A stretch of 64,000 nucleotides of DNA, taken from assembly GCA_027946365.1 (NCBI GenBank), contig JAPEUQ010000011.1, positions 62,001-126,000 on the forward strand. Direction: 5' to 3'. This stretch comes from Kalmusia sp. IMI 367209. Its lineage: Eukaryota > Ascomycota > Dothideomycetes > Pleosporales > Didymosphaeriaceae. Of the stretch, positions 988 through 37,918 are shown in pieces (the stretch's first letter is position 1; each line of letters starts with the position of its first letter). A program made the translations under genes and the position numbers. The notes under the pieces were generated by a model. The model was not told the origin of the DNA. It ran no database searches and worked only from the letters and a program-made list of their open reading frames with translations.

Positions 988-2035
988 TTATTCCCCACAT
1001 CGGGCAGGTGGGGTTCGTGGCCCACGATAGATGTTCCCTAGACAGGTGTCAGTAAGTTGCAAAATAGACAAAATAGAGTTAGGATTTCCTCACCATCAGG
1101 CCTAGTAATCAAACCTTCCTCCTCCGTGAAAGAATGTCGTTTCGTCCAATCCTGAACAGCATCCCAATTAACACACGCCGAATCCACAGTATTATTAGCA
1201 AACGCCACACCAGGCTTATCAGGGTTCCAAGCAATAGCCCTGACACCAAGATCCGGCTGGCAAATTAGCCTCCTCCGTAAAGTTTCGATGCAGTGATCTA
1301 TATGTGGCGGGAAGTAGCGCTCATCGTCCGTGTCATAATGCCCCGTATAGTTGGCCTCCGTGTCGCGCAGGTTTGTGCAACCGACTCCCGCAACTTGGTG
1401 TCTGATGGAGTCTAAGCAGTGTAGGTGGTGGTAGACGTTCATTGAGACCCAGACATCGCCTGAATTGTCATTTAGAGAGATGCTTTCGAGGTTTATGGCA
1501 TCGAGAGATGCTGATGGGACGCGTATTGAGTATCCTGGATGCGGTTCGTTATCCGTATGTCGACAATCGTTTTCGAATTCGTACGATGGGGCTGTTTCCA
1601 CTCACCATCCATGAGCTCCATCCATCTAGCTGTCCTCTCTGGGGTTGGAAATCCCTTGTATGAGCTTGCGTGGTCATGGCCCTCGACATCATGATGTGTA
1701 AGAGTCAATCGCTGGGAAGATATAGCTTCGAATGCCGGCGCTTGTTGGTAGTCTCTGTCAGTTCTAGAGAAACTAGCTGAGATCGGCTACTATGAAGATA
1801 CTGAAAACTTACAAGGCACCATTGAGTATTGCGCGAGTTGGTCGCTAGCGCTCCGTGGACATGCATTGTTGAGAAACAACCCGATAATCAGCCCGGCAGT
1901 GAAGATGATCACGTTGATGATTAGGTGCCTGATGTCCAACCGTCGGCTCCAGGCTACGGTGATGGATTTACTCTGCAACGAAACCTCTTCATCATCTTCC
2001 TCGCTGTGAAGTGGCCTGTACTTTTGGTACGGCAT
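988..2035 (-). CDS. UstYa-like (DUF3328) oxidase/cyclase of a RiPP locus
   Basis: Four exons on the minus strand join in frame: 2035-1813, 1776-1606, 1534-1094 and 1037-988, for 294 residues. The layout is typical of UstYa/DUF3328 proteins: a short acidic cytosolic head, one membrane anchor (about residues 35-55, IINVIIFTAGLIIGLFL), a YKGFPTPE-like segment before a conserved Trp, then the two family motifs HHLHC (after MNVY) and HIDHC. UstYa-type proteins carry out oxidative cyclisation and related steps on fungal RiPP cores in the secretory pathway. The gene is divergent from the repeat precursor at 2755, sharing a roughly 0.7-kb intergenic region. Introns 2 and 3 (71 and 56 nt) have good GT-AG and branch sites. 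Intron 1 is only 36 nt and is the least certain junction. All four exons sum to a multiple of three. The family call is firm; the exact reaction is not visible. Confidence 0.85.
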
Positions 2036-2754
2036 TTTCAGGTCTCGAGGACGAAAAAGGACACGAGATGAACTTAGTGTATGATGCCACCCAAGCTCGA
2101 ATTGTATGTGAGGGCAATGACTACTTGATCTCCTACTTTCGGCTTCTTAGGTTGCTTTTGTTCTACTCCTGAGTGAGCCCCATGTACGCTAGGCCGGTGC
2201 TATCCAGCACATAGCGTAGCGAGACCGCCACCTCATTACCCCTGCAAACTAAATTCCTTATCTCATGACCCACGAATTAAGTGAGAATCCAGCCGTCTGA
2301 GAGAGCTTACTGTGTAGGGTGGTGATCGCTAGATCCAGACTAAAAGACGAGTTACGCGCGATTTGTCTATCGATGGTGAGGCGAAAGCACAAGAGAAAGT
2401 GTCAATACTAGAGGTATCTCTTTTGGAAGTGGGACTGGCGACAAGCATAGATACATACAAGATCCAGATGTCAGTGATATTAAAAGATCTGACTCTGTTA
2501 GATCGGGAAGGTGAGTTGGCTACACCTCCGCCAGGCCTCCATGGTCGCTGCTTGGCGCTTCCTGCATTGTGCTCCTACGCCGAGCATTTACACCGCAGTC
2601 TATCGATAACGTTACCTTACGCGACGCCTGCAGGGTGCACAGCACTACCAGCCGTTTTAGAACATATATACATGTATACATCATGTCTGGTCATCCTTAA
2701 ATGTGGCCCTCCGCCTTTCCTTCGTCTCACGCGCCATACCTCTCAGTATTCAAC
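2036..2754. promoter_or_regulatory. Shared divergent promoter region of the UstYa-like gene and the precursor gene
   Basis: About 720 bp separate the two divergent start codons, so one region probably drives both genes. Open frames inside it (for example 2363-2890 in another frame) run into the precursor exon and show no protein features. The best core-promoter candidate is the TATA-rich palindrome annotated separately at 2661-2680. No regulator binding site was identified with confidence. Confidence 0.5.
2661..2680 (+). promoter_or_regulatory. TATA-like element with a 12-bp palindrome upstream of the precursor gene
   Basis: The stretch contains CATATATA followed by TATACATGTATA, a perfect 12-bp palindrome at 2667-2678, about 80 bp before the precursor ATG at 2755. 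Position and composition suit a TATA box. The palindrome could alternatively be a chance AT-rich motif. Confidence 0.4.
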
Positions 2755-3242
2755 ATGCGTGTCTCCACTCTCTCTGCCATCCTCGGACTCGCTGCTAGCT
2801 TTGCCAGCGCGGCCCCCGTTCAGACCAAAGATGTTCAGAATCGCGAAGCTTCCCCTCAGTGGTACGACATCAGCTACATCGACAAGGTGAAGCGCGAGGA
2901 GGCCGAGAAGAAGCGCGGACCTGAGGCCCAGTGGTACGGTGAGTATTTTTCTTAGACCCTATTGACAAATTCTTACATACTTACCGCCTGAATAGATATT
3001 TCCTACATCGACAAGGTGAAGCGCGAGGAGGCCGAGAAGAAGCGCGAACCTGTGGCCCAGTGGTATGGTGAGTAATTTCCCTACTACTTAAAGAATCTCA
3101 TTTACTGATCGCCTACACAGATATCAGCTACATCGACAAAAACAAGCGTGGGGATGCCGAAAGAAGCGCAAGGCGGATCCTCAGTGGTATGACATCAGCT
3201 ACATTGACAAGCGTGCCCAGGAGAATGAGCAGTAGAGCGTGA
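2755..3242 (+). CDS. Dikaritin-like RiPP precursor peptide with repeated WYDISYID cores
   Basis: Three exons (2755-2938, 2996-3067, 3121-3242) give 125 residues in the frame as it stands. Residues 1-19 form a clear signal peptide (MRVSTLSAILGLAASFASA). Then come units with a QWYDISYIDK core and a linker rich in Lys, Arg and Glu (KVKREEAEKKR), whose Lys-Arg pairs fit Kex2 cleavage in the Golgi. Three cores read in frame. A fourth copy at about 3182-3211, followed by its own stop at 3233-3235, lies one base out of frame because the linker before it lacks one base relative to its sister copies (near 3158-3162). The alternative start at 2701 is in frame but would place 18 extra residues before the signal peptide, so 2755 is preferred. 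UstYa-like genes on both sides support a RiPP precursor role. The Tyr-x-Ile pattern of the core matches known dikaritin cores in style, but the product is unknown. Confidence 0.8.
2860..3211 (+). repeat. Four core/linker repeats of the precursor, two of them intron-bearing
   Basis: Core copies start at the Trp codons 2860, 2932, 3061 and 3185. The linker between copies 1 and 2 and the one between copies 2 and 3 are nearly identical at the DNA level, pointing to recent duplication or gene conversion. Copies 2 and 3 are each split by an intron (2939-2995, 3068-3120) at exactly the same place, after Trp-Tyr and the first base of the Asp codon. Copies 1 and 4 have no intron there. The spacing in the spliced message is about 24 codons. 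Confidence 0.85.
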
Positions 3243-3906
3243 AAGATCATGGAGTTTCCTCGAGTCTTTACGTCAGAGAGGTGACGATGTGAAGCAGTAC
3301 CGGTTCACATAGAAACGTGTAGCTGTATATCCTCACTTATGCTGTCAAATGGACTCATTGTCAGAGTCTGTCGGAAAGACTACAACTGTGCCAATCCCTG
3401 CCATGCGAAAATCCCAAGGGCCGAAAGAACGACCCATATCCTTCCTTAAACTTTCATAGTAAGCCTTGGCTTATCGATGACTTAATGAGGGCTAAAAGAC
3501 GCAAATCTGACGCACGAAGTAAGCCAGACACCTTCCTCTTTCGTGGCACATGAAGGATCAACTCGCATGAGACAAGTGGAGTAATTTCTGGGCGACTTTA
3601 TTCTTCTACTTTAGCATGTTGACCGATCTGTAACCCATAGACTTCGCGCTTCAACGCTTGAACCTTGGCTACATCCTTGGCGGTGGATTGGTGGTTGGGG
3701 AGGCGGCATGTTTGCAGTCTATCAGAGACGGCTCGCAAAGTATTGCGCGCTATCTAATCTCTTTATACTAGCGCCCTATACATTATACGCGAGCTTAGTC
3801 TTGCTGACACAATGTCTTGCCTAAGATTTCGCCTAGTTGCCAGACCTCCTAATCTAACTTTCAATCAAAGACCGCTTTGTGAATTTTTTTGGTTCACTGT
3901 ACCAAG
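3243..3906. other. Spacer between precursor and second UstYa-like gene
   Basis: About 660 bp with no open frame that looks coding. It should contain the precursor 3' UTR and the promoter of the next gene. A TATA-rich stretch (ctttatacta, ctatacattatacg) lies near 3761-3790, about 120-150 bp before the ATG at 3907. Confidence 0.4.
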
Positions 3907-4908
3907 ATGGAACGGCCGGATGGTCGGATGAGCTTTGACGACTCTGACGACACTCAGGACACCCATTATTATTCATCAGAAACATCATCACATAGCGTAG
4001 ATGCTGATGCGGAGAAGTTTCTTTTGTTGGGCCAGGGAAACTCAAGCATTCGCAGAGGCACTTGGAGACATGCTTGTTCAACCAGGATTCTGATTGTTGT
4101 GGCGGTTCTTAACGTCATCTTGTTCTTGGTATCCATGGTGATACTATCATCATCGAACAGGCTGAGCCAACTGTCAGACCAGGACTACTGGAGAGCTACA
4201 TCCTACTATTGTACATAATTCCACCCTCATATCTTCAGAAGAACTGGCAGCTGACATTGCATTGAGAAATTACAGCCCCAGTATTCGACCGCTTCAACAT
4301 TCGCAAGCTCACACGAGTTACAAATGGCACATTCTGGGACGCAGAACCCCCTTCAATTTGGCGCGTCCGCACCGGCGCAGAAGCAGACGCAGCATGGGAA
4401 GCAATCGGAAGCAACATTGCGCCCATAATAATAACCGCCGCCGATGTTCTTGCTCTCGGCAAAGACCCCCTCCACGGCCGTCAAAGCACCTTCCGAACTC
4501 AACCTCGGCCCAGACGCGTACATAGCAGGCATGGACGTCTTCCACCACCTACACTGCTTAGACAAGCTTCGCCGAGAGATATCGTATGCGCACTACCACG
4601 AGGCGAAGGAAGGTCCAAGCCCTGGGTCTGATTTGCATGTGGCACATATTAATCACTGTCTTGATGTGCTTGCGCAGGCATTGAGATGCACGGGGAGTGT
4701 CGATATGATTACTTTTAATTGGGTCGAAGGCCATCGGATGCCGCAGCCGGATTTTAATAACAAGAAAGTTTGTAGGGATTTTGAGGCGTTGAGGGGGTGG
4801 ACGATTGAGAATGGGGTCGACAGTGAGGATTTCTTTAAGGCTGCTAGTAAGCCGCCGCCTGAGGCTATTATTATACCTGAATTCCACCCCCACTACACGG
4901 GTAGATGA
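3907..4908 (+). CDS. Second UstYa-like (DUF3328) protein, with a one-base frameshift
   Basis: Exon 1 (3907-4210) encodes an acidic head and a membrane anchor (about residues 60-80, ILIVVAVLNVILFLVSMVIL). A 65-nt intron (4211-4275, GTACAT to TACAG) joins it in phase to exon 2, restoring a YYSPVFDRF segment typical of the family. Exon 2 then shows a DAAWEAIG region, HHLHC and HINHC, and a C-terminal Trp-rich part ending at TGA 4908. The reading frame must shift once between the DAAW part and HHLHC. The exon sum is one base over a multiple of three, and the C5 run at 4466-4470 is the natural site of an extra base. Whether this is a sequencing error or real inactivation cannot be told. The ATG at 3907 is used because the codon at 3889 that opens the frame is TTG. 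It is the downstream partner of the precursor in the RiPP locus. Confidence 0.75.
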
Positions 4909-5135
4909 GAGATTAGGATTAGAATAGATAGACTACTTGATCAATTTTCTCTCTCATAGTAAAGTAGGGCATAAGCGACTTGCCAACCCCTTAGTTAGTA
5001 ACCTTGAATGTTATCTACTAATAGCCTTTCAACTAATAGAGCGATAGGACTACAATATTGCCCTATAATCCTTATATAATTAAGTATTAGGCTAAAATAT
5101 TATAAAAAAGGTACTATAACATTTTGAATATAATG
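4909..5135. other. AT-rich spacer
   Basis: A short stretch markedly richer in A, T and TpA steps than its neighbours (for example around 5041-5110). It marks the right edge of the RiPP genes and may be the remains of a mutated repeat. No gene is seen. Confidence 0.4.
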
Positions 5136-6066
5136 TTGTACTGGAGCTTGCTTGCCGCGCTTCCTGGTCGATTACAAGCTATACCAGATGGCGAGACAGA
5201 TGATCAATCCAACTACATTGGATAGCAGCTGCAACCTTATCCCTTGCGTGGCCTGGCGAAGTGAATCGGGAGAGAGACCGTTGCCTGAACTTGCACAACC
5301 GATTTTTACACTCGAAGACATCGAACCAACAGCCTACAACGAGGTCGCGCTATCATCGTACATCTAACTTACACGCCTCCGTCAGCAGAATATCATTCCA
5401 TCAGATGCCCTCTTCCAATTCGGCCTGCCTTCGCCTTACAGCGTGCTAAATGGCCATATAGAACCGGAGCTGGTCAATGCGATTGAGCCGCTGTATGAGC
5501 AGCGCTTCACAGAAAGCATTCATCACATCGTTTCGAACATCCCTCATGATGATCTGATAATCCAATGGGACCTGTGCTTTGAGATGATGGCACTTGAGTT
5601 TGATCGGGATGGCTTACCGACAAATGCCTTCAGCCGCTATTTTCCATTACCTGTGCTACAAGGTCAAGTAAGCTAGGTGGTGCGGCTATGTGAGAGGATT
5701 CCTCAGGATATAAAGCTCGGTGCTTGTCGAACTTGCCAACGCCTTACTTGCGCGCCAGACGGTCGGCCCACGAACTCAGTGCATTCATCTCCCAGTACCA
5801 AAAGAACGAACCGATTCTGATTATTTTGCATCTCTAGCCGGCCTCAAGCTAAACCACTCTGTCTCTAGCTCAGAACCACCCGTGGTATATCTCGGTCTAG
5901 TACGACGAGGAAACGCATAGAGACTGCACATGATAGTGTTCCGTTCAACTTTACTCTTGGCGTGGCGACGGAATTAGGTTTGAGGAGGACTCCGCTAGAA
6001 GAGATCGACAGCATTCTACATATTTGTAAAGACGTCGCCATGGAGCGCCCAGTAGAGCATTTTTAA
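5136..6066 (+). pseudogene. Decayed MetE/UROD-superfamily-like gene
   Basis: Pieces of one protein are read in different frames. A RLQAIPDGETDDQSNYIG segment is followed by TAG at 5223-5225 where the family has Trp. Then a part containing DIEPTAYNEVALSSY has a TAA at 5365-5367, and FQFGLPSPYS, EPLYEQRF and DLIIQWDLCFEM follow. After a deletion near 5720 come VLVELANALL, IHLPVPKERTDSDYF and VYLGLVRRGN, and finally LGVATELGLRRTP with a C-terminal stop at 6064-6066. This order matches fungal hypothetical proteins related to cobalamin-independent methionine synthase / uroporphyrinogen decarboxylase folds; the match is from family memory. Several stops, frameshifts and the loss of the central part make it a pseudogene rather than a simple base-calling problem. 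The 5' end is also missing. Confidence 0.65.
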
Positions 6067-9000: not shown

Positions 9001-9122
9001 TGCTCTTCACAGATTATCACAAATTGCAGCACGTTTCAAGAAGTCGACGAAGTATATAAACACGCATTATTTTACCAAGAATGCGAAGTCTGTTGCAAAA
9101 CTGAACAGCGAGGAGGAAATTA
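6067..9122. other. Gene-poor stretch of about 3 kb
   Basis: No open frame here shows a recognisable motif, signal peptide, repeat or convincing exon chain. The longest (8442-8978, 178 codons, plus strand) has no family features and overlaps a competing 136-codon frame. The region lies between the decayed MetE-like gene and the HET gene and is probably a mixture of relic sequence and the HET promoter. Confidence 0.4.
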
Positions 9123-11459
9123 ATGTGTGCGCAGTGCGACCATCTACGTCTACGGCACATTTTGAAATGTTTTCCATCAACCAAACTCTACACGGACGAA
9201 GAGATATCAATTAGCGTAAATCCATTCCACGAAGATTCCTCTGGCTGCGACTTTTGCTCTTATATCTCTAAATGTCTTGAACAGTATTGCAAATACACAA
9301 AGGTAGATAGTGATGTCATGAGAAGTGGCGGTCGATTCTTCCTAGGCCTTCCAACCGTCCGTCGCCGATACTTTCTCATCGGTCCTATGAGCATACGACT
9401 ATATCCACGCTTCGCCGAGGATTCCGATATCTTGATAACGAGTACTGGACAGGAGCAAGATGTGTACCTCAAAACGAATGTGAATTGGGAGCTAATCAGT
9501 AAATGGGTCTCGCAAGAAGTAGAGCCGCAGAAAACGCAGATGGATGTGCTTGCGTATCTTGAAGATGAACTCGAAGATGTCCGGGTCATAGATGTCGATC
9601 AGTCATGTATTTCGTATGTACCTCCCAGTGGTACATACGTTGCATTGTCGTATGTCTGGGGCAAAGAACCAAGCGGGCAATTTCAAACAATGCGCCACAA
9701 CATTCACAGCCTGGAGCAACCTGGTAGTCTAGGGCATACAAGCCTGCCACGAACCATCACAGATGCTATGACCGCATGCAGGAAGCTCGGTCAGAGATTC
9801 CTGTGGATCGACCGTTTATGTATCATCCAGGACGAGCCTCTGCACATCAAGTCTATTCAGCTGGACCAGATGGGGGCGATTTATCGACAAGCGAAATTCA
9901 CCATAGTAGCTCTAGCCGGTGACGGTGCGACTTACGGACTCCCAGGAGTAAGCCAGCCTCGAATATCCGCCCAGAAGAAGCTCCATCTATATGACTTTGA
10001 GCTCGTTGAAAGTACACCGACACTGTATGCTTGTATGACCCAAAGTATCTGGCAGACTCGTGGCTGAACCTTCCAGGAGTCAGCAGCATCTATGTCTCTC
10101 ATCTACTTCACAGATTTCGGGGTCTACTTCCGCTCTCGCGAAAGCGACATGTCTCGCATCATGACAGAGGGGCCTGCAAAACCAGAACTGAACTTTATGG
10201 ACGGGACAGATGACTATCACTACTCTCATCTAGTGGAGCTATATACAAAGAGATTCTTATCTTATCCTGTTGATATCTTGCGAGCTTTCACAGGAGTTCT
10301 GCATGGGCTTTACGGTCTACATTCATTTGGAATGCCCTGGACGGCTTTAGATCGGGCTATCTTATGGGAAGCGAGTGACTTCAGTAGTGGCCCGAGAAGC
10401 GCAACCGATACTGAGATTTTCCCATCATGGTCTTGGGCCTCCGCTACCGGATCAATTCACTTCCACGAAAGGAGTCCGAGAGGGTGTAGCGTTGCGTTCT
10501 TGGGTATTCCCAATAGCGGCAACAGCTGCTCACCAAGTGTCGACATCGCAGAACCGCTATTCTACGATGAGACTCGATTCTACAGCGACAAACAAGGATT
10601 GGGAACGCACATGGCTGCTGCACTGGCCTGGCTCAATGGGTGCATACGCACCGAGACCCCACAATACCTTAGCAGAAATGAGCTTTCACGCCCACCGCGT
10701 AGTCTTTGGAAATTCTGGCCAGACTATATCACTTACTGGCATGAGGCATTCGATCATTACAAAACTATCGACGTCTTCTCAAAATCCGATATCGAAATCG
10801 CCCGCAAGCCTGGGCATCTCATGATCCATACGCAAATTGCACGATTCAGCTTATACTGGCTGGGCCAGCGCGGTGTCAGTCCAGGTTGTAATCAGTTTCT
10901 CATTCGTGCTAGTAATTATACGATAGCTGGAAGCATTTACCTTGGCCAGCACTACGCCAGAGAGTACAAAGAAGCCGACGGAACTGAAGCCTATTTCATC
11001 GCACTATCTACTTGCCGTTTTCCTGAGACGAGGCTATCATCTGCCTTAGTCGATTCGCACTTCGAGCATATACCTCTGGGCGCTATCTACGGATGCCCAT
11101 GTAGCACTACTGCCAAATCACGCTTTGTCATCATCGACCATTTCTCGACCTGTCCGCAAAATCCAAACTTCACAACGCCTGTGACTTTCCAGCCCTCGCC
11201 GCTTCCACTAGGAGGTCGCAATCGCAAACCGAGCGAACGTGTTTTAGCTTTCTCGAAGTACCTAGGCGGACTGAGCTACGTGGATTCGAACGGCGATTTA
11301 TTGCATCCTTGGGATGACGTTCCGGGTTTAAGTGTGCTTCTTATTAGAGCAAGTGAGAAAAATGAAAGTGATGTTTATCACCGAATCGGTATTGGGCGGA
11401 TAAGTCTCAAGAGGTGGGTGGAAGCTTATCCTGTTTTCAAGACCGTGGTGCTTGAATGA
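9123..11459 (+). pseudogene. HET-domain protein interrupted by one in-frame stop
   Basis: A single frame runs from ATG 9123 to TGA 11459 (about 778 residues) except for TGA at 10065-10067. The N-terminus has a Cys-containing segment (MCAQCDHLRL). The HET signature follows: YVALSYVWG at about residues 172-180, then LPRTITDAM, FLWIDRLCIIQD and a QMGAIYRQA block. HET domains act in heterokaryon incompatibility and related cell-death responses. The stop replaces the conserved Trp of the TRG-W-TFQE motif, and the frame continues without other damage for over 450 codons, including a PSWSWAS motif typical of these proteins. It may be a recent null allele or a base-call error. No intron with proper splice sites removes the stop. 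Confidence 0.75.
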
Positions 11460-35086: not shown

Positions 35087-36121
35087 TTTGATCTTCACTG
35101 CCTGAATGATTGATGAAAATTCGTGAGTCGCAATGAATATATCGAGAGTCTATCGAGCTTTTTCGACTACTGCTGTACGGCAGGATTCCATCCCTGTTCA
35201 TGTGGGGTCCTAAGGATAGTTCTAAGAATAGCACGCTCTACGGTTTGGTTTACCACCCCACCACCAGTGTCGCCCAACATGGCGAAGTGTAAGCCAATCT
35301 GCCTATCACTCACACTGCAGGCTACTATGAGCGCATCTGTCTTTTACAGGTTGCCACTTGTCGCATCCTCTACCCTCCAGAGCCAAGGTTGCGGTACGGT
35401 TTCGCCGCCCATCGTATCGTGTCTAGTTGTAGCCTCGTTTTCAGTCCGGAGCGCCTCGGCCGCCCCACCGCTCTGGTTCGCATCATCATCCTTCGTCCAG
35501 CGCAGCCCTGCCTGGACGATCACCACCTTCTCTGCCCAATACCAGCATACACCCCAGACGCGCGTGGCCTCAAACACGATGCCTACACTCTGTCTTCGGA
35601 CTTCGAGCTGGACCACCATGCCCGGACCCCGATGCTCGCGCCCAATCGTCGCACACCGGCAGTCCGTAAGACTACCCCGATTGGCGCAGTCACCCTGTAC
35701 AGATTAGCTCCCCGACCTCAGGTATACAACAATAGCGTGCTGACTGCAGCTAAAGCTGCAGGCCTGTCTGGTGTTTGTCTGGTGCAGCGGACACACCTAA
35801 GCTGTGAGCATGCTCGCTCCTGGTTCGAGTCGGCGGGCTTGCGTACGGGAGGCTGCTTTCTACGGCCTTGTGCGACTGGGGTTACCAGCTTGGAAGCCCG
35901 ACGCCCCGGCGTATGTCATTCTGGATGCTGCGGACACTTATAATCGTGAGGTGCCGTGGGGCGGCCACGCCGCTTAGTCTTCATCAAATGTCCGGTTCGC
36001 AACTATCGTAGGTACTTAGGCGTGGCCTTTACGCATTTACAGGAGTTTGCTCCACCCAACAACGCCATACGAGATATATTGGTTGTGATCTTTCTTCCCG
36101 AACTCACAGCTGACGCCGACC
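35087..36121. other. Spacer of about 1 kb upstream of the gag-like gene
   Basis: A 184-codon frame (35389-35943, plus) and a 194-codon frame (35123-35707) overlap and neither has motifs. Possible splice signals (for example an acceptor at 35349) suggest a transcribed leader of the next gene, but no coding exon could be placed. Confidence 0.35.
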
Positions 36122-37918
36122 ATGGGCCCACTACTGCCGTCCCCGCGTCTGCCTGGTGTTATCATCCTGCGAGCCGAGGCTACCGGACCGGAATATGCTA
36201 GATGGAAACGAGAGATTAAGAGCGCATTCACAGCAAAGGAAACATGGGGTCACTGCGACGGAAGCAATCCGATGCCAATGCCAGGAGCCGGACCGAACTT
36301 CTTTTCGCCAGTGTCCCAACCCGATATGCAGACGACGCTTTTGGAAGATCGCAAGGCATGGGTGAAGAAGGACCGGGAAGTTAAGCTCGACATTTTCCTC
36401 TCGGTTTCGGACGAGATCAAACTCGAAGTATTTGAAGTCGGACCACCACTACCGCCGTCGGCAATGACAGCTAAAGAAATGCTCGAGGCGCTAGACGAGC
36501 ACTTCGACGGCTTCAAGTTTGAGGACTACCACCACGTTTTCTGCCACTTCTTGAATCTCCACATCGATCAATACACCAACATCGAGGAGTTCAATGCCGA
36601 ATTCAAGGCTACTCTTGACGATCTACTAGACCATGGCCACCCATTGTCTAATACACAGGCCTGCAGCGCCTACTTCTCAAAATTACGATGCACGCAGAAC
36701 CCATGGGTTGCAAAGCAGATAAAAGCATGGGATAGTCGCGATCAAGAACCCGAACTCGCACAAATAATGAAAAAGTCTCCGCCATGGTCCATCATCCGCC
36801 CGTTGACGATGTCTACCAAAGGCTCTTCACACAAGTCAGTTCCGGACTCAATACCAGAAGAGTCTCTTGTAGATACCCCTCCTCACTCGGATGGCGAATA
36901 TACTCCTTCAGAACACTCTATCGCAACAGTGTCCTCGAAGCCATCACATTCCCGCGACTCCTCCAACGCAACCCAAAAATCTCAAGAAATCACCATCCAC
37001 GCATCCTACGAGGACCTCACCGAGCTCCAGCTCCAGGCCTTCCCTGAAGTACCTGTCGGCCTTCCAACACACATCCCCAAGCGCGTGTCCAGCATCTCAA
37101 AGCTCTCAATGCACTCCCTGCCACCCATCAACCGGCCTCTCCCACCCATCCCCCTACCACAGAGCGTTCCTGCTCCGTCTCCCCAACACCACCAAGAACA
37201 AACCCAAAGGCGCAAACCCCCAACGCGACTCCTCCCCACAACTAGCCTTCCCGGCCTCGAGCAAACCCATCCTGCACTACGCTCGCCCCTCCCCAAACCC
37301 GAACACGTACCCGAACCTACCATCACCCTCGACCAACTCGAATTGCACCCCGCGATGCGGCGGTCGCCATCACCGCCCCGCGTCCTATCACCACCACCCC
37401 GCCAAGACTCACTCCCACTGCCGCAACCACAACCGGTCAAACCATCCGTCACGGCTCCCGAACTCCAGGCCGACGTCCCCTCCGCGCACATCGCAGCTGT
37501 AATGCGCGCCCTGACTCCCTCTCCACCTCCAACCATCACCCTCGCACCTCCCACGCTCGAGGTCCGTCCTAGCACGTCTCGCTCGGCGATGACGCACCAA
37601 GAGACGTTCTCGAACTGGTCTCAAACCCGTCCACTCCTGCGCATCGATTCGGAGACCAGCAGCGTTTTGAGTCTGCCTCTACAGGGCACGACGCGCAGCG
37701 CGACCCCCGAATTTGCCGATACTACGATCACGGAGACAGCGCCGCAGAAGAAGTCGCCCTCCAAGATCGAGCTTGCGAAGATGCGATTCGAAGGGAGAGC
37801 AGGGAGTCCAAGTCGAGGGCTTCTCGTGCCGAGTGACGAAGAGAAGAAGGCGCGGAAGCGGAGCTGGAGCATTAAAGCTAGACTGAGCGCTCGCCATGGA
37901 ATCAAGGAAATCATCTGA
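36122..37918 (+). CDS. Copia gag-like (UBN2-type) domain protein with long Pro/Ser-rich tail
   Basis: One exon, 598 residues, with a good start context (GACCATGG). Residues about 20-215 look like the gag region of Ty1/copia elements: an YARWKREIKSAFTAKETWGH opening, DRKAWVKKDREVKLDIFLSV, then ALDEHFDGFKFEDYHHVFCH and EFNAEFKATLDDLLDHGHPL. No zinc knuckle, protease, integrase or reverse transcriptase follows. Instead there is a disordered region very rich in Pro, Ser and His, and a basic C-terminus (KKARKRSWSIKARLSARHG). No LTRs are seen beside it. An intact frame without pol, with added host-like tail, suggests a domesticated gag gene. The tail resembles scaffolding or cytoskeleton-associated fungal proteins, but the function is unknown. 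The family call rests on pattern recognition. Confidence 0.65.
   Translation: MGPLLPSPRLPGVIILRAEATGPEYARWKREIKSAFTAKETWGHCDGSNPMPMPGAGPNFFSPVSQPDMQTTLLEDRKAWVKKDREVKLDIFLSVSDEIKLEVFEVGPPLPPSAMTAKEMLEALDEHFDGFKFEDYHHVFCHFLNLHIDQYTNIEEFNAEFKATLDDLLDHGHPLSNTQACSAYFSKLRCTQNPWVAKQIKAWDSRDQEPELAQIMKKSPPWSIIRPLTMSTKGSSHKSVPDSIPEESLVDTPPHSDGEYTPSEHSIATVSSKPSHSRDSSNATQKSQEITIHASYEDLTELQLQAFPEVPVGLPTHIPKRVSSISKLSMHSLPPINRPLPPIPLPQSVPAPSPQHHQEQTQRRKPPTRLLPTTSLPGLEQTHPALRSPLPKPEHVPEPTITLDQLELHPAMRRSPSPPRVLSPPPRQDSLPLPQPQPVKPSVTAPELQADVPSAHIAAVMRALTPSPPPTITLAPPTLEVRPSTSRSAMTHQETFSNWSQTRPLLRIDSETSSVLSLPLQGTTRSATPEFADTTITETAPQKKSPSKIELAKMRFEGRAGSPSRGLLVPSDEEKKARKRSWSIKARLSARHGIKEII

What the first reader, a model, noticed from the sequence alone, without database searches (positions are those of the whole stretch)
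988..4908. Candidate dikaritin RiPP locus with an unrecognised WYDISYID core
Seen: a signal-peptide precursor with repeated QWYDISYIDK cores between Lys-Arg-rich linkers, flanked by two genes with the paired HxxHC motifs of UstYa/DUF3328. Known: in dikaritin pathways UstYa-type proteins cyclise Tyr-containing cores released by Kex2-like cleavage. Inferred: this locus makes a cyclic peptide from a Tyr-Asp-Ile-Ser-Tyr-Ile-Asp-type core. The core has two Tyr residues, so one or two ether links are conceivable. I do not recognise this core from characterised pathways.
Basis: partly seen in the sequence, partly recalled or inferred. Interest (0 to 1): 0.92.

Follow-up and report, generated by a model that had tools for sequence, protein, structure and literature searches.

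The report
Intron-split fungal ring-peptide precursor family
A fungus sequenced from a collection of plant endophytes carries a gene that spells the short peptide QWYDISYID four times, with two predicted introns cutting through the repeats, between two UstYa-family enzyme genes; the peptide is likely trimmed like a yeast mating pheromone and predicted to be closed into a ring, and related precursors occur in another named fungus and in metagenome data.

Summary
Window 988-4908 lies in Kalmusia sp. IMI 367209 (Pleosporales) and carries a KR-punctuated repeat precursor between two UstYa (DUF3328) genes, both with paired HxxHC motifs. Four QWYDISYIDK cores are present, but not in one open frame: copies 2 and 3 are split inside the Asp codon by predicted 57- and 53-nt GT-AG introns, and copy 4 lies in another frame. 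The right-hand UstYa gene is also read in two frames, so in this assembly the locus may be decaying. The precursor is one of 24 family members, core Q[WF]YD[IV][ST]Y[IV]D; 22 of 24 show one side of the same split core. Three relatives share exact contig lengths with close UstYa hits, which indicates co-location. Spacers before the core alternate as X-Ala/X-Pro (A/P at 80 of 90 even, 5 of 90 odd positions), pointing to Kex2, then Ste13-type trimming to N-terminal Gln. The core holds the Tyr-X-Ile motif cross-linked in ustiloxin and phomopsin. No tyrosinase is near. Cyclisation, splicing and expression are untested. New variant of a known kind: an UstYa-linked repeat precursor with a conserved long core and intron-split repeats.

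The parts
988..2035 (-). UstYa/DUF3328-type gene 1, divergent from the precursor; C-terminal Pfam match within 1038-1601; HxxHC motifs at 1416-1430 and 1290-1304; N-terminal hydrophobic segment; no interruption seen when read by eye with GT-AG introns
   Evidence: Pfam PF11807 E 1.2e-21; motifs; exon reading by eye; last short exon (988-1037) inferred by eye
2755..2938 (+). Precursor exon 1: signal-peptide-like leader, core 1 complete, first part of core 2
   Evidence: translation; closest relatives 78-83% identical
2857..2886 (+). Core copy 1 QWYDISYIDK (uninterrupted)
2939..2995 (+). Predicted intron 1 (57 nt, GTGAGT...TAG, phase 1), inside the Asp codon of core copy 2
   Evidence: sequence; similar to intron 2, alignment score 52 against shuffled mean 31, 0 of 500 shuffles reach it; family evidence
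2996..3067 (+). Precursor exon 2 (72 nt, exactly one repeat unit, phase 1-1)
3068..3120 (+). Predicted intron 2 (53 nt, GTGAGT...CAG, phase 1), inside the Asp codon of core copy 3
   Evidence: the NCBI model P0001 places the acceptor later
3121..3242 (+). Precursor exon 3: rest of core 3; core 4 is carried here in another frame
   Evidence: frame of core 3 ends at a stop at 3240-3242; frame of core 4
3182..3211 (+). Core copy 4 QWYDISYIDK, out of frame with core 3 as assembled
3907..4908 (+). UstYa/DUF3328-type gene 2; intron about 4211-4275 by eye; read in two frames either side of roughly 4450-4475; HxxHC motifs at 4543-4557 and 4645-4659; relatives continuous over that stretch exist (P0025, P0026, P0028)
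   Evidence: Pfam PF11807 in two frames, profile 51-110 and 115-220; 86% identical relatives; motifs

Best explanation
This is a repeat-precursor gene between two UstYa-family genes, and its core, QWYDISYID, is likely released by Kex2 and a Ste13-type dipeptidase and predicted to be cross-linked into a ring by the flanking UstYa oxidases. Shown by sequence: the leader, the four core copies, the KR sites, the X-Ala/X-Pro spacers, the two UstYa genes, a family of relatives with the same split core, and exact contig-length matches between three relatives and close UstYa hits. Inferred steps: (1) splicing joins the two halves of cores 2 and 3; (2) Kex2 cuts after KR in the Golgi and Kex1 trims basic residues at the C-terminus; (3) a Ste13-type peptidase removes two X-Ala/X-Pro dipeptides, exposing Gln, which would cyclise to pyroglutamate; (4) a UstYa copper oxidase forms a Tyr-Ile side-chain ether in the Y-D-I segment, as in ustiloxin and phomopsin, with the second Tyr as a possible further site. 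The conserved core would fit a signal or hormone-like role at least as well as a toxin. In this strain the product may no longer be made in full, because one UstYa gene and the last core are out of frame as assembled.
For: UstYa Pfam matches on both sides and paired HxxHC motifs. Four cores whose six variable codons are all synonymous; 11 of 90 single changes to core 1 would be. 24 precursor family members including the window's own, E from 5.6e-57 to 3.2e-10. UstYa(+) hits share contig lengths 77022, 6602 and 6508, and contig counts 2, 1 and 2, with precursor hits; 3 matches observed, 0.026 expected in a length-jitter control, 0 of 2000 trials with 3 or more. Spacer alternation 80 of 90 against 5 of 90. 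Split core: 18 of 24 show the 5' side and 4 others the 3' side. YXI is the cross-linked motif of ustiloxin and phomopsin (PMC7329392, passages and Discussion); [quoted passage not shown] DUF3328 HxxHC(x)nHxxHC is a dicopper site and the cyclase AprY is copper-dependent (PMC12435403, passages). All 31 members of alignment A2 have two HxxHC motifs, which lie on two predicted helices, 101-116 and 133-153, of P0026.
Against: No expression, splicing or metabolite data. No tyrosinase nearby (the only match on this contig is at C3:1107446), although ustiloxin and phomopsin need one; asperipin-2a does not. Position 3 of the YXI motif is Val in 7 of 36 complete cores, and Ala or Thr in three orphan halves. 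Spacer KSDP (8 of 45), KTEA and EADS (1 each) break the dipeptide rule, and Ala stands at an odd position in 5. Copies 1 and 2 end ...DK-V-KR, which Kex1 alone would not trim to ...YID. The assembled plus-strand UstYa gene and core 4 are out of frame. The NCBI gene model disagrees with mine on the intron 2 acceptor.
Confidence: 0.66

Rival explanations
1. The precursor makes an unmodified linear signalling peptide, pheromone-like, and the UstYa genes act on something else.
For: The X-Ala/X-Pro spacer is described as generally dedicated to alpha pheromones in Ascomycota (PMC6339444, passages); Trp near the N-terminus and KR-EAEA punctuation are pheromone-like. No canonical pheromone gene was found elsewhere in the genome by three patterns.
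Against: Annotated pheromone precursors lack nearby DUF3328 genes with three exceptions (PMC7329392), whereas here two UstYa genes flank the precursor and three relatives appear to share contigs with UstYa hits. The core has neither the Cys pair nor the PYG[LM]P[IV]G motif of Pleosporales pheromones. The pattern searches are inconclusive, so this rival is not closed.
Confidence: 0.14
2. The locus is real but decaying or silent in this strain: a relic of a pathway that is intact in relatives. This can hold together with the best explanation.
For: Core 4 lies in another frame than core 3; the plus-strand UstYa is read in two frames while relatives P0025, P0026 and P0028 read through the same stretch; a nearby HET gene has an in-frame stop at 10065-10067.
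Against: The minus-strand UstYa (by eye), the leader and cores 1-3 are uninterrupted once the predicted introns are allowed for; core 4 is still perfect at the peptide level, so the change would be recent. The hybrid assembly was polished with short reads (PMC10027605, passages), but residual indel errors cannot be excluded. No RIP signal: TpA/ApT 0.59-1.00 over 1-16.5 kb, window mean 0.73.
Confidence: 0.35
3. A secreted structural or surface-active repeat peptide, cut by Kex2 but neither cyclised nor a signal.
For: A linear peptide from a Kex2-processed repeat protein acts in aerial hyphae formation (PMC7329392, Discussion).
Against: The short polar core, its two Tyr, the X-Ala/X-Pro spacers and the UstYa neighbours are not expected of it (inference).
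Confidence: 0.05

Closest known systems
Ustiloxin / phomopsin (dikaritin) precursors UstA, PhomA and the POI2-type KEPs
   Same: Signal peptide, KR-separated repeated cores, UstYa genes nearby, Tyr-X-Ile motif in the core (PMC7329392; PMC6514808)
   Different: Core is longer, Q[WF]YD[IV][ST]Y[IV]D; no tyrosinase nearby; cores split by predicted introns; near-strict X-Ala/X-Pro spacer (whether UstA or PhomA has such a spacer was not checked)
Asperipin-2a (AprA/AprY)
   Same: Aromatic-rich core with several Tyr, UstYa cyclase, no tyrosinase in a four-gene cluster (PMC6514808, passages)
   Different: Core FYYTGY is unrelated; one UstYa gene there, two here; the neighbour here is an RTA1-like gene; a reductase was not sought
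Ascomycete alpha-pheromone precursors
   Same: KR followed by X-Ala/X-Pro dipeptides, repeated short peptides (PMC6339444, passages)
   Different: Core lacks pheromone motifs; UstYa genes flank it
Amanita MSDIN precursors and intron-bearing KEP genes
   Same: Introns in fungal peptide-precursor genes are known: one 52-58 bp intron in MSDIN genes (PMC5159998, passages), alternative splicing of two MSDIN transcripts (PMC7998459, passages), and KEP genes of an agaric amplified from cDNA to be intron-less (PMC9769878, one passage)
   Different: In MSDIN genes the intron interrupts the fourth-last codon; here predicted introns cut through the core and repeat with it

Membership tests
Kex2-processed repeat protein (KEP) | N-terminal signal peptide | tested here: inconclusive
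   By eye only: MRVSTLSAILGLAASFASA-AP; no predictor available
Kex2-processed repeat protein (KEP) | Repeated motif separated by KR-type sites | tested here: met
   Four identical cores with KR linkers, the fourth out of frame
Dikaritin | Multiple DUF3328/UstYa genes beside the precursor | tested here: met
   Two, one each side; one of them is read in two frames
Dikaritin | Tyrosinase in the cluster (Ding definition as told in PMC12048977, passages; clusters lacking some of these genes were reported later) | tested here: not met
   37 PF00264 match pieces in the genome, the only one on this contig at C3:1107446
Dikaritin | Methyltransferase, transporter or peptidase in the cluster | tested here: inconclusive
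   RTA1-like gene next upstream and a sugar-transporter gene about 12 kb upstream; only selected frames were scanned; no methyltransferase or peptidase among them
Dikaritin | Side-chain cross-linked (ether) product | not testable with these tools
   Needs LC-MS/NMR
UstYa / DUF3328 copper oxidase | HxxHC(x)nHxxHC | tested here: met
   Both window genes; 31 of 31 in alignment A2
Alpha-pheromone precursor | Pheromone core (Cys pair, or PYG[LM]P[IV]G in Pleosporales) | tested here: not met
   Core QWYDISYID has neither; motifs given in PMC6339444

The most novel reading that the evidence does not exclude
A Pleosporales peptide-hormone class in which splicing sets the dose: one exon equals exactly one repeat unit (72 nt, phase 1-1), cores 2 and 3 are completed only by removing an intron from inside them, and intron retention or acceptor choice switches which and how many cores are made; the released peptide is trimmed like a mating pheromone and then cross-linked by UstYa.
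Probability: 0.15. Interest if true: 0.78.

Novelty: new variant of a known kind. Interest (0 to 1): 0.55.

Why it matters
It adds a conserved core family to the UstYa-linked peptides, with a clear chemical prediction (Tyr-Ile ether, pyroglutamate N-terminus) and masses to look for. Introns inside the repeats can hide such precursors from searches that look for repeats in one open frame: the public gene model here is likely wrong, and my own one-frame scan missed this gene while finding four others. The pheromone-like spacer next to UstYa genes bears on the proposal (PMC7329392, Discussion) that cyclic peptides of this kind arose from linear, pheromone-like precursors. If splicing sets core number, that would be a new layer of control for a ribosomal natural product.

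Tried and rejected
A rescue of core 4 by a further intron in linker 3 was considered and rejected: the gap is about 40 nt and no GT-AG pair of usual size fits (by eye). RIP as the cause of decay was rejected on dinucleotide indices. The pheromone idea was tested by three pattern searches: WCxxxGQPCW (recalled, 0 matches), WCxxxGQxC (recalled, 4 matches against 5 in the reversed control) and PYG[LM]P[IV]G (from PMC6339444, 0 matches); inconclusive. A scan of viral contigs confirmed no relative (71 pattern matches, none confirmed). A DNA search of the own genome with 2755-3234 found only the locus itself. UstYa relative P0025 has no sequence match among solved structures at E <= 1, and the AlphaFold model of P0026 (mean pLDDT 74.4, pTM 0.62, monomer only) has no PDB match at E <= 0.001, so it adds only that both motifs sit on two long helices. 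Position counts for Y, D, Y and K are circular, because the search pattern fixed those letters; the Gly of the split cores was fixed by the pattern too, and was checked without that bias. The claim that the X-Ala/X-Pro spacer is unique to this family in the genome was dropped: locus L016, beside another UstYa gene, has a similar ladder. The claim that no other repeat precursor of the sample has an intron among its repeats was dropped as well: the fourth copy in L007 lies beyond an in-frame stop.
Full report
WHERE IT IS. The window is G000:C3:62001-126000 of a 42.8 Mb, 30-contig fungal genome. The precursor's public gene model is N0V90_009502 of Kalmusia sp. IMI 367209, Didymosphaeriaceae, Pleosporales. 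The genome paper (PMC10027605, passages only) calls it an endophyte, cf. Kalmusia sp., assembled with Raven from long reads and polished with short reads.

OBSERVATION. PF11807 (UstYa) matches window:1038-1601:- (E 1.2e-21), 4435-4908:+ (2.3e-34) and 4266-4631:+ (6.4e-6). Both genes have two HxxHC motifs. Between them lies the precursor. Four copies of QWYDISYIDK are present; six of ten codons vary among copies and all six are synonymous, where 11 of 90 single changes to core 1 would be. This is well beyond chance and indicates selection on the peptide.

GENE STRUCTURE. The repeat is not one frame. My model (by eye, translated exon by exon) has exons 2755-2938, 2996-3067 and 3121-3242. Both predicted introns are GT-AG, 57 and 53 nt, and both fall after the first base of the Asp codon in WYD. 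They resemble each other (score 52 against a shuffled mean of 31, 0 of 500 shuffles reach it), as if the intron was copied with the repeat. Exon 2 is 72 nt, exactly one repeat. Core 4 (3182-3211) is in a different frame from core 3. The NCBI model (P0001) takes a later acceptor for intron 2, which drops core 3 and reads core 4; the family evidence below favours my acceptor. Each model yields three complete cores.

FAMILY. A profile search found 24 proteins at E <= 10 (the window's own P0001 among them), the weakest at 3.2e-10. Only two carry organism names: P0001 and Periconia macrospinosa P0012. Twenty-two of the 24 show one side of a split core (read). Eighteen have Q[WF][YF]-Gly in place of Asp, the residue after Gly being Lys (9), Glu (5), Ala (1), Arg (1) or the end (2), which is what G|GTAAG and G|GTGAG donors would mostly read as. 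Four others begin inside the core's second half. Three of the 18 (P0004, P0005, P0009) read through 19 extra residues (57 nt) and resume at DISYIDK. No Q[WF][YF] is followed by anything but D or G, except in the NCBI model P0001. In P0018 and P0019 the split is in the first copy. The remaining two, P0001 and P0012, are annotated spliced models. No DNA of these relatives was seen, so their introns are inferred. Complete cores number 36 in 21 proteins: position 1 Q 33, A 2, P 1; position 2 W 21, F 14, V 1; position 5 I 29, V 7; position 6 S 23, T 12, I 1; position 8 I 22, V 14; position 9 D 34, G 2. The other positions were fixed by the search pattern.

LINK TO UstYa. A search with 4462-4908 gave 34 proteins at E <= 1e-10 among 43 candidates, the best two 86% identical, from Paraconiothyrium brasiliense (P0025) and a metagenome (P0026). 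Three of the 34 share an exact longest-contig length, a source and a contig count with three of the 23 non-self precursor hits: 77022 (P0026/P0007), 6602 (P0033/P0002) and 6508 (P0034/P0015). Jittering the lengths gives 0.026 matches on average and never three in 2000 trials. I read this as the same contigs; two of them are under 7 kb, so the genes would be close neighbours. The other 20 precursor hits show no match, which says little, because only the longest contig of each cluster is listed.

PROCESSING. Of 54 spacers between the last Arg and the core, 45 have four residues before Gln; Ala/Pro stands at even positions in 80 of 90 cases and at odd positions in 5 of 90. The nine left out are five of two residues (EA), three of P0012 and one of eight residues. 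The 45 come from related sequences and only 15 are distinct (27 of 30 even, 2 of 30 odd positions among these). This is the X-Ala/X-Pro signature of Ste13, described as generally dedicated to alpha pheromones in Ascomycota (PMC6339444, passages). It would leave Gln at the N-terminus. At the C-terminus, DKR and DKVKR both occur, so trimming there is less clear.

CROSS-LINK. In ustiloxin and phomopsin the Tyr and Ile of a YXIX core are joined (PMC7329392, passages and Discussion). YDIS and YDIT fit; YDVS (7 of 36 cores have Val there) keeps a beta-branched residue. DUF3328 enzymes are described as binuclear copper enzymes at the HxxHC pair, and the asperipin cyclase AprY as copper-dependent (PMC12435403, passages). 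No tyrosinase is near, as in asperipin-2a.

IN-GENOME CONTROL. The genome has 102 UstYa match pieces in 55 loci. Thirty stretches were fetched with 1.5 kb flanks, some overlapping and one (L011) being the window locus. Six others (L007, L012, L015, L016, L029, L030) carry repeats with dibasic sites; in all six the listed copies lie in one frame, whereas the window's four lie in three frames. Two qualifications: L010 gave a single five-letter word in three frames, over 1.2 kb, which I take for chance; and in L007 the fourth copy lies beyond an in-frame stop, so an intron between repeats is likely there too, though not inside a core. Sites further than 1.5 kb from a match, and the remaining UstYa loci, were not examined. 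So an UstYa-linked repeat precursor is ordinary in this genome; cores cut by introns were not seen in the other six. L016 also has an X-Ala/X-Pro ladder, so that trait is not unique.

STATE OF THE LOCUS. The plus-strand UstYa matches the profile at 51-110 in one frame and 115-220 in another, while P0025, P0026 and P0028 read through that stretch. With core 4 this makes two frame changes within about 1.3 kb. Either the locus is decaying or the assembly carries small errors; RIP is not indicated.

LITERATURE. Exact core strings were sought in two searches: 0 papers and 7 unrelated ones. A search for introns or alternative splicing with fungal RiPP precursors (5 papers) gave two on Amanita MSDIN genes, whose intron interrupts the fourth-last codon (PMC5159998, passages) and two of whose transcripts are alternatively spliced (PMC7998459, passages). 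Introns in KEP genes as such are not new: PMC9769878 amplified intron-less KEP sequences from cDNA (one passage). The word intron does not occur in the main text of the large KEP survey PMC7329392. Supplementary tables, subscription papers and figures were not searched, so earlier listing of this family cannot be excluded.

VERDICT. A real, conserved precursor family of a known kind with an unusual gene structure. Product, splicing and activity in this strain remain untested.

Noticed in passing
L007, L012, L015, L016, L029, L030 (G000 C4, C7, C26, C30, C6, C27): Beside six other UstYa matches of this genome lie repeat precursors with dibasic sites within 1.5 kb, with repeats such as PIGQFISIWYGEDGDD, VDATYTSINWKKV, APTVDEGFSKIIY, ATYAPLVYTGGLK, SSPVPPLWDGG and TEFAPWYRATNILP.
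   Followed up: partly
L016, near the end of its minus strand: A repeat ATYAPLVYTGGLK preceded by a ladder EADAEADPKAAA, again X-Ala/X-Pro after KR, beside a UstYa gene.
   Followed up: no
window 9105-11459 (+): HET-domain gene (PF06985) with an in-frame TGA at 10065-10067, in what looks by recall like the conserved RGWTFQE motif: probably a pseudogene.
   Followed up: no
window 5134-6061 (+): Short open pieces in changing frames, the two tested without Pfam match, next to AT-rich DNA; looks like a gene relic.
   Followed up: partly
L031:9239-9940 (-), just upstream of the window: RTA1-like membrane protein gene that likely runs into the window start; the nearest neighbour of the minus-strand UstYa and a possible exporter.
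   Followed up: partly
window 36089-37918 (+): Long frame with weak copia gag-like matches below Pfam cut-offs.
   Followed up: no
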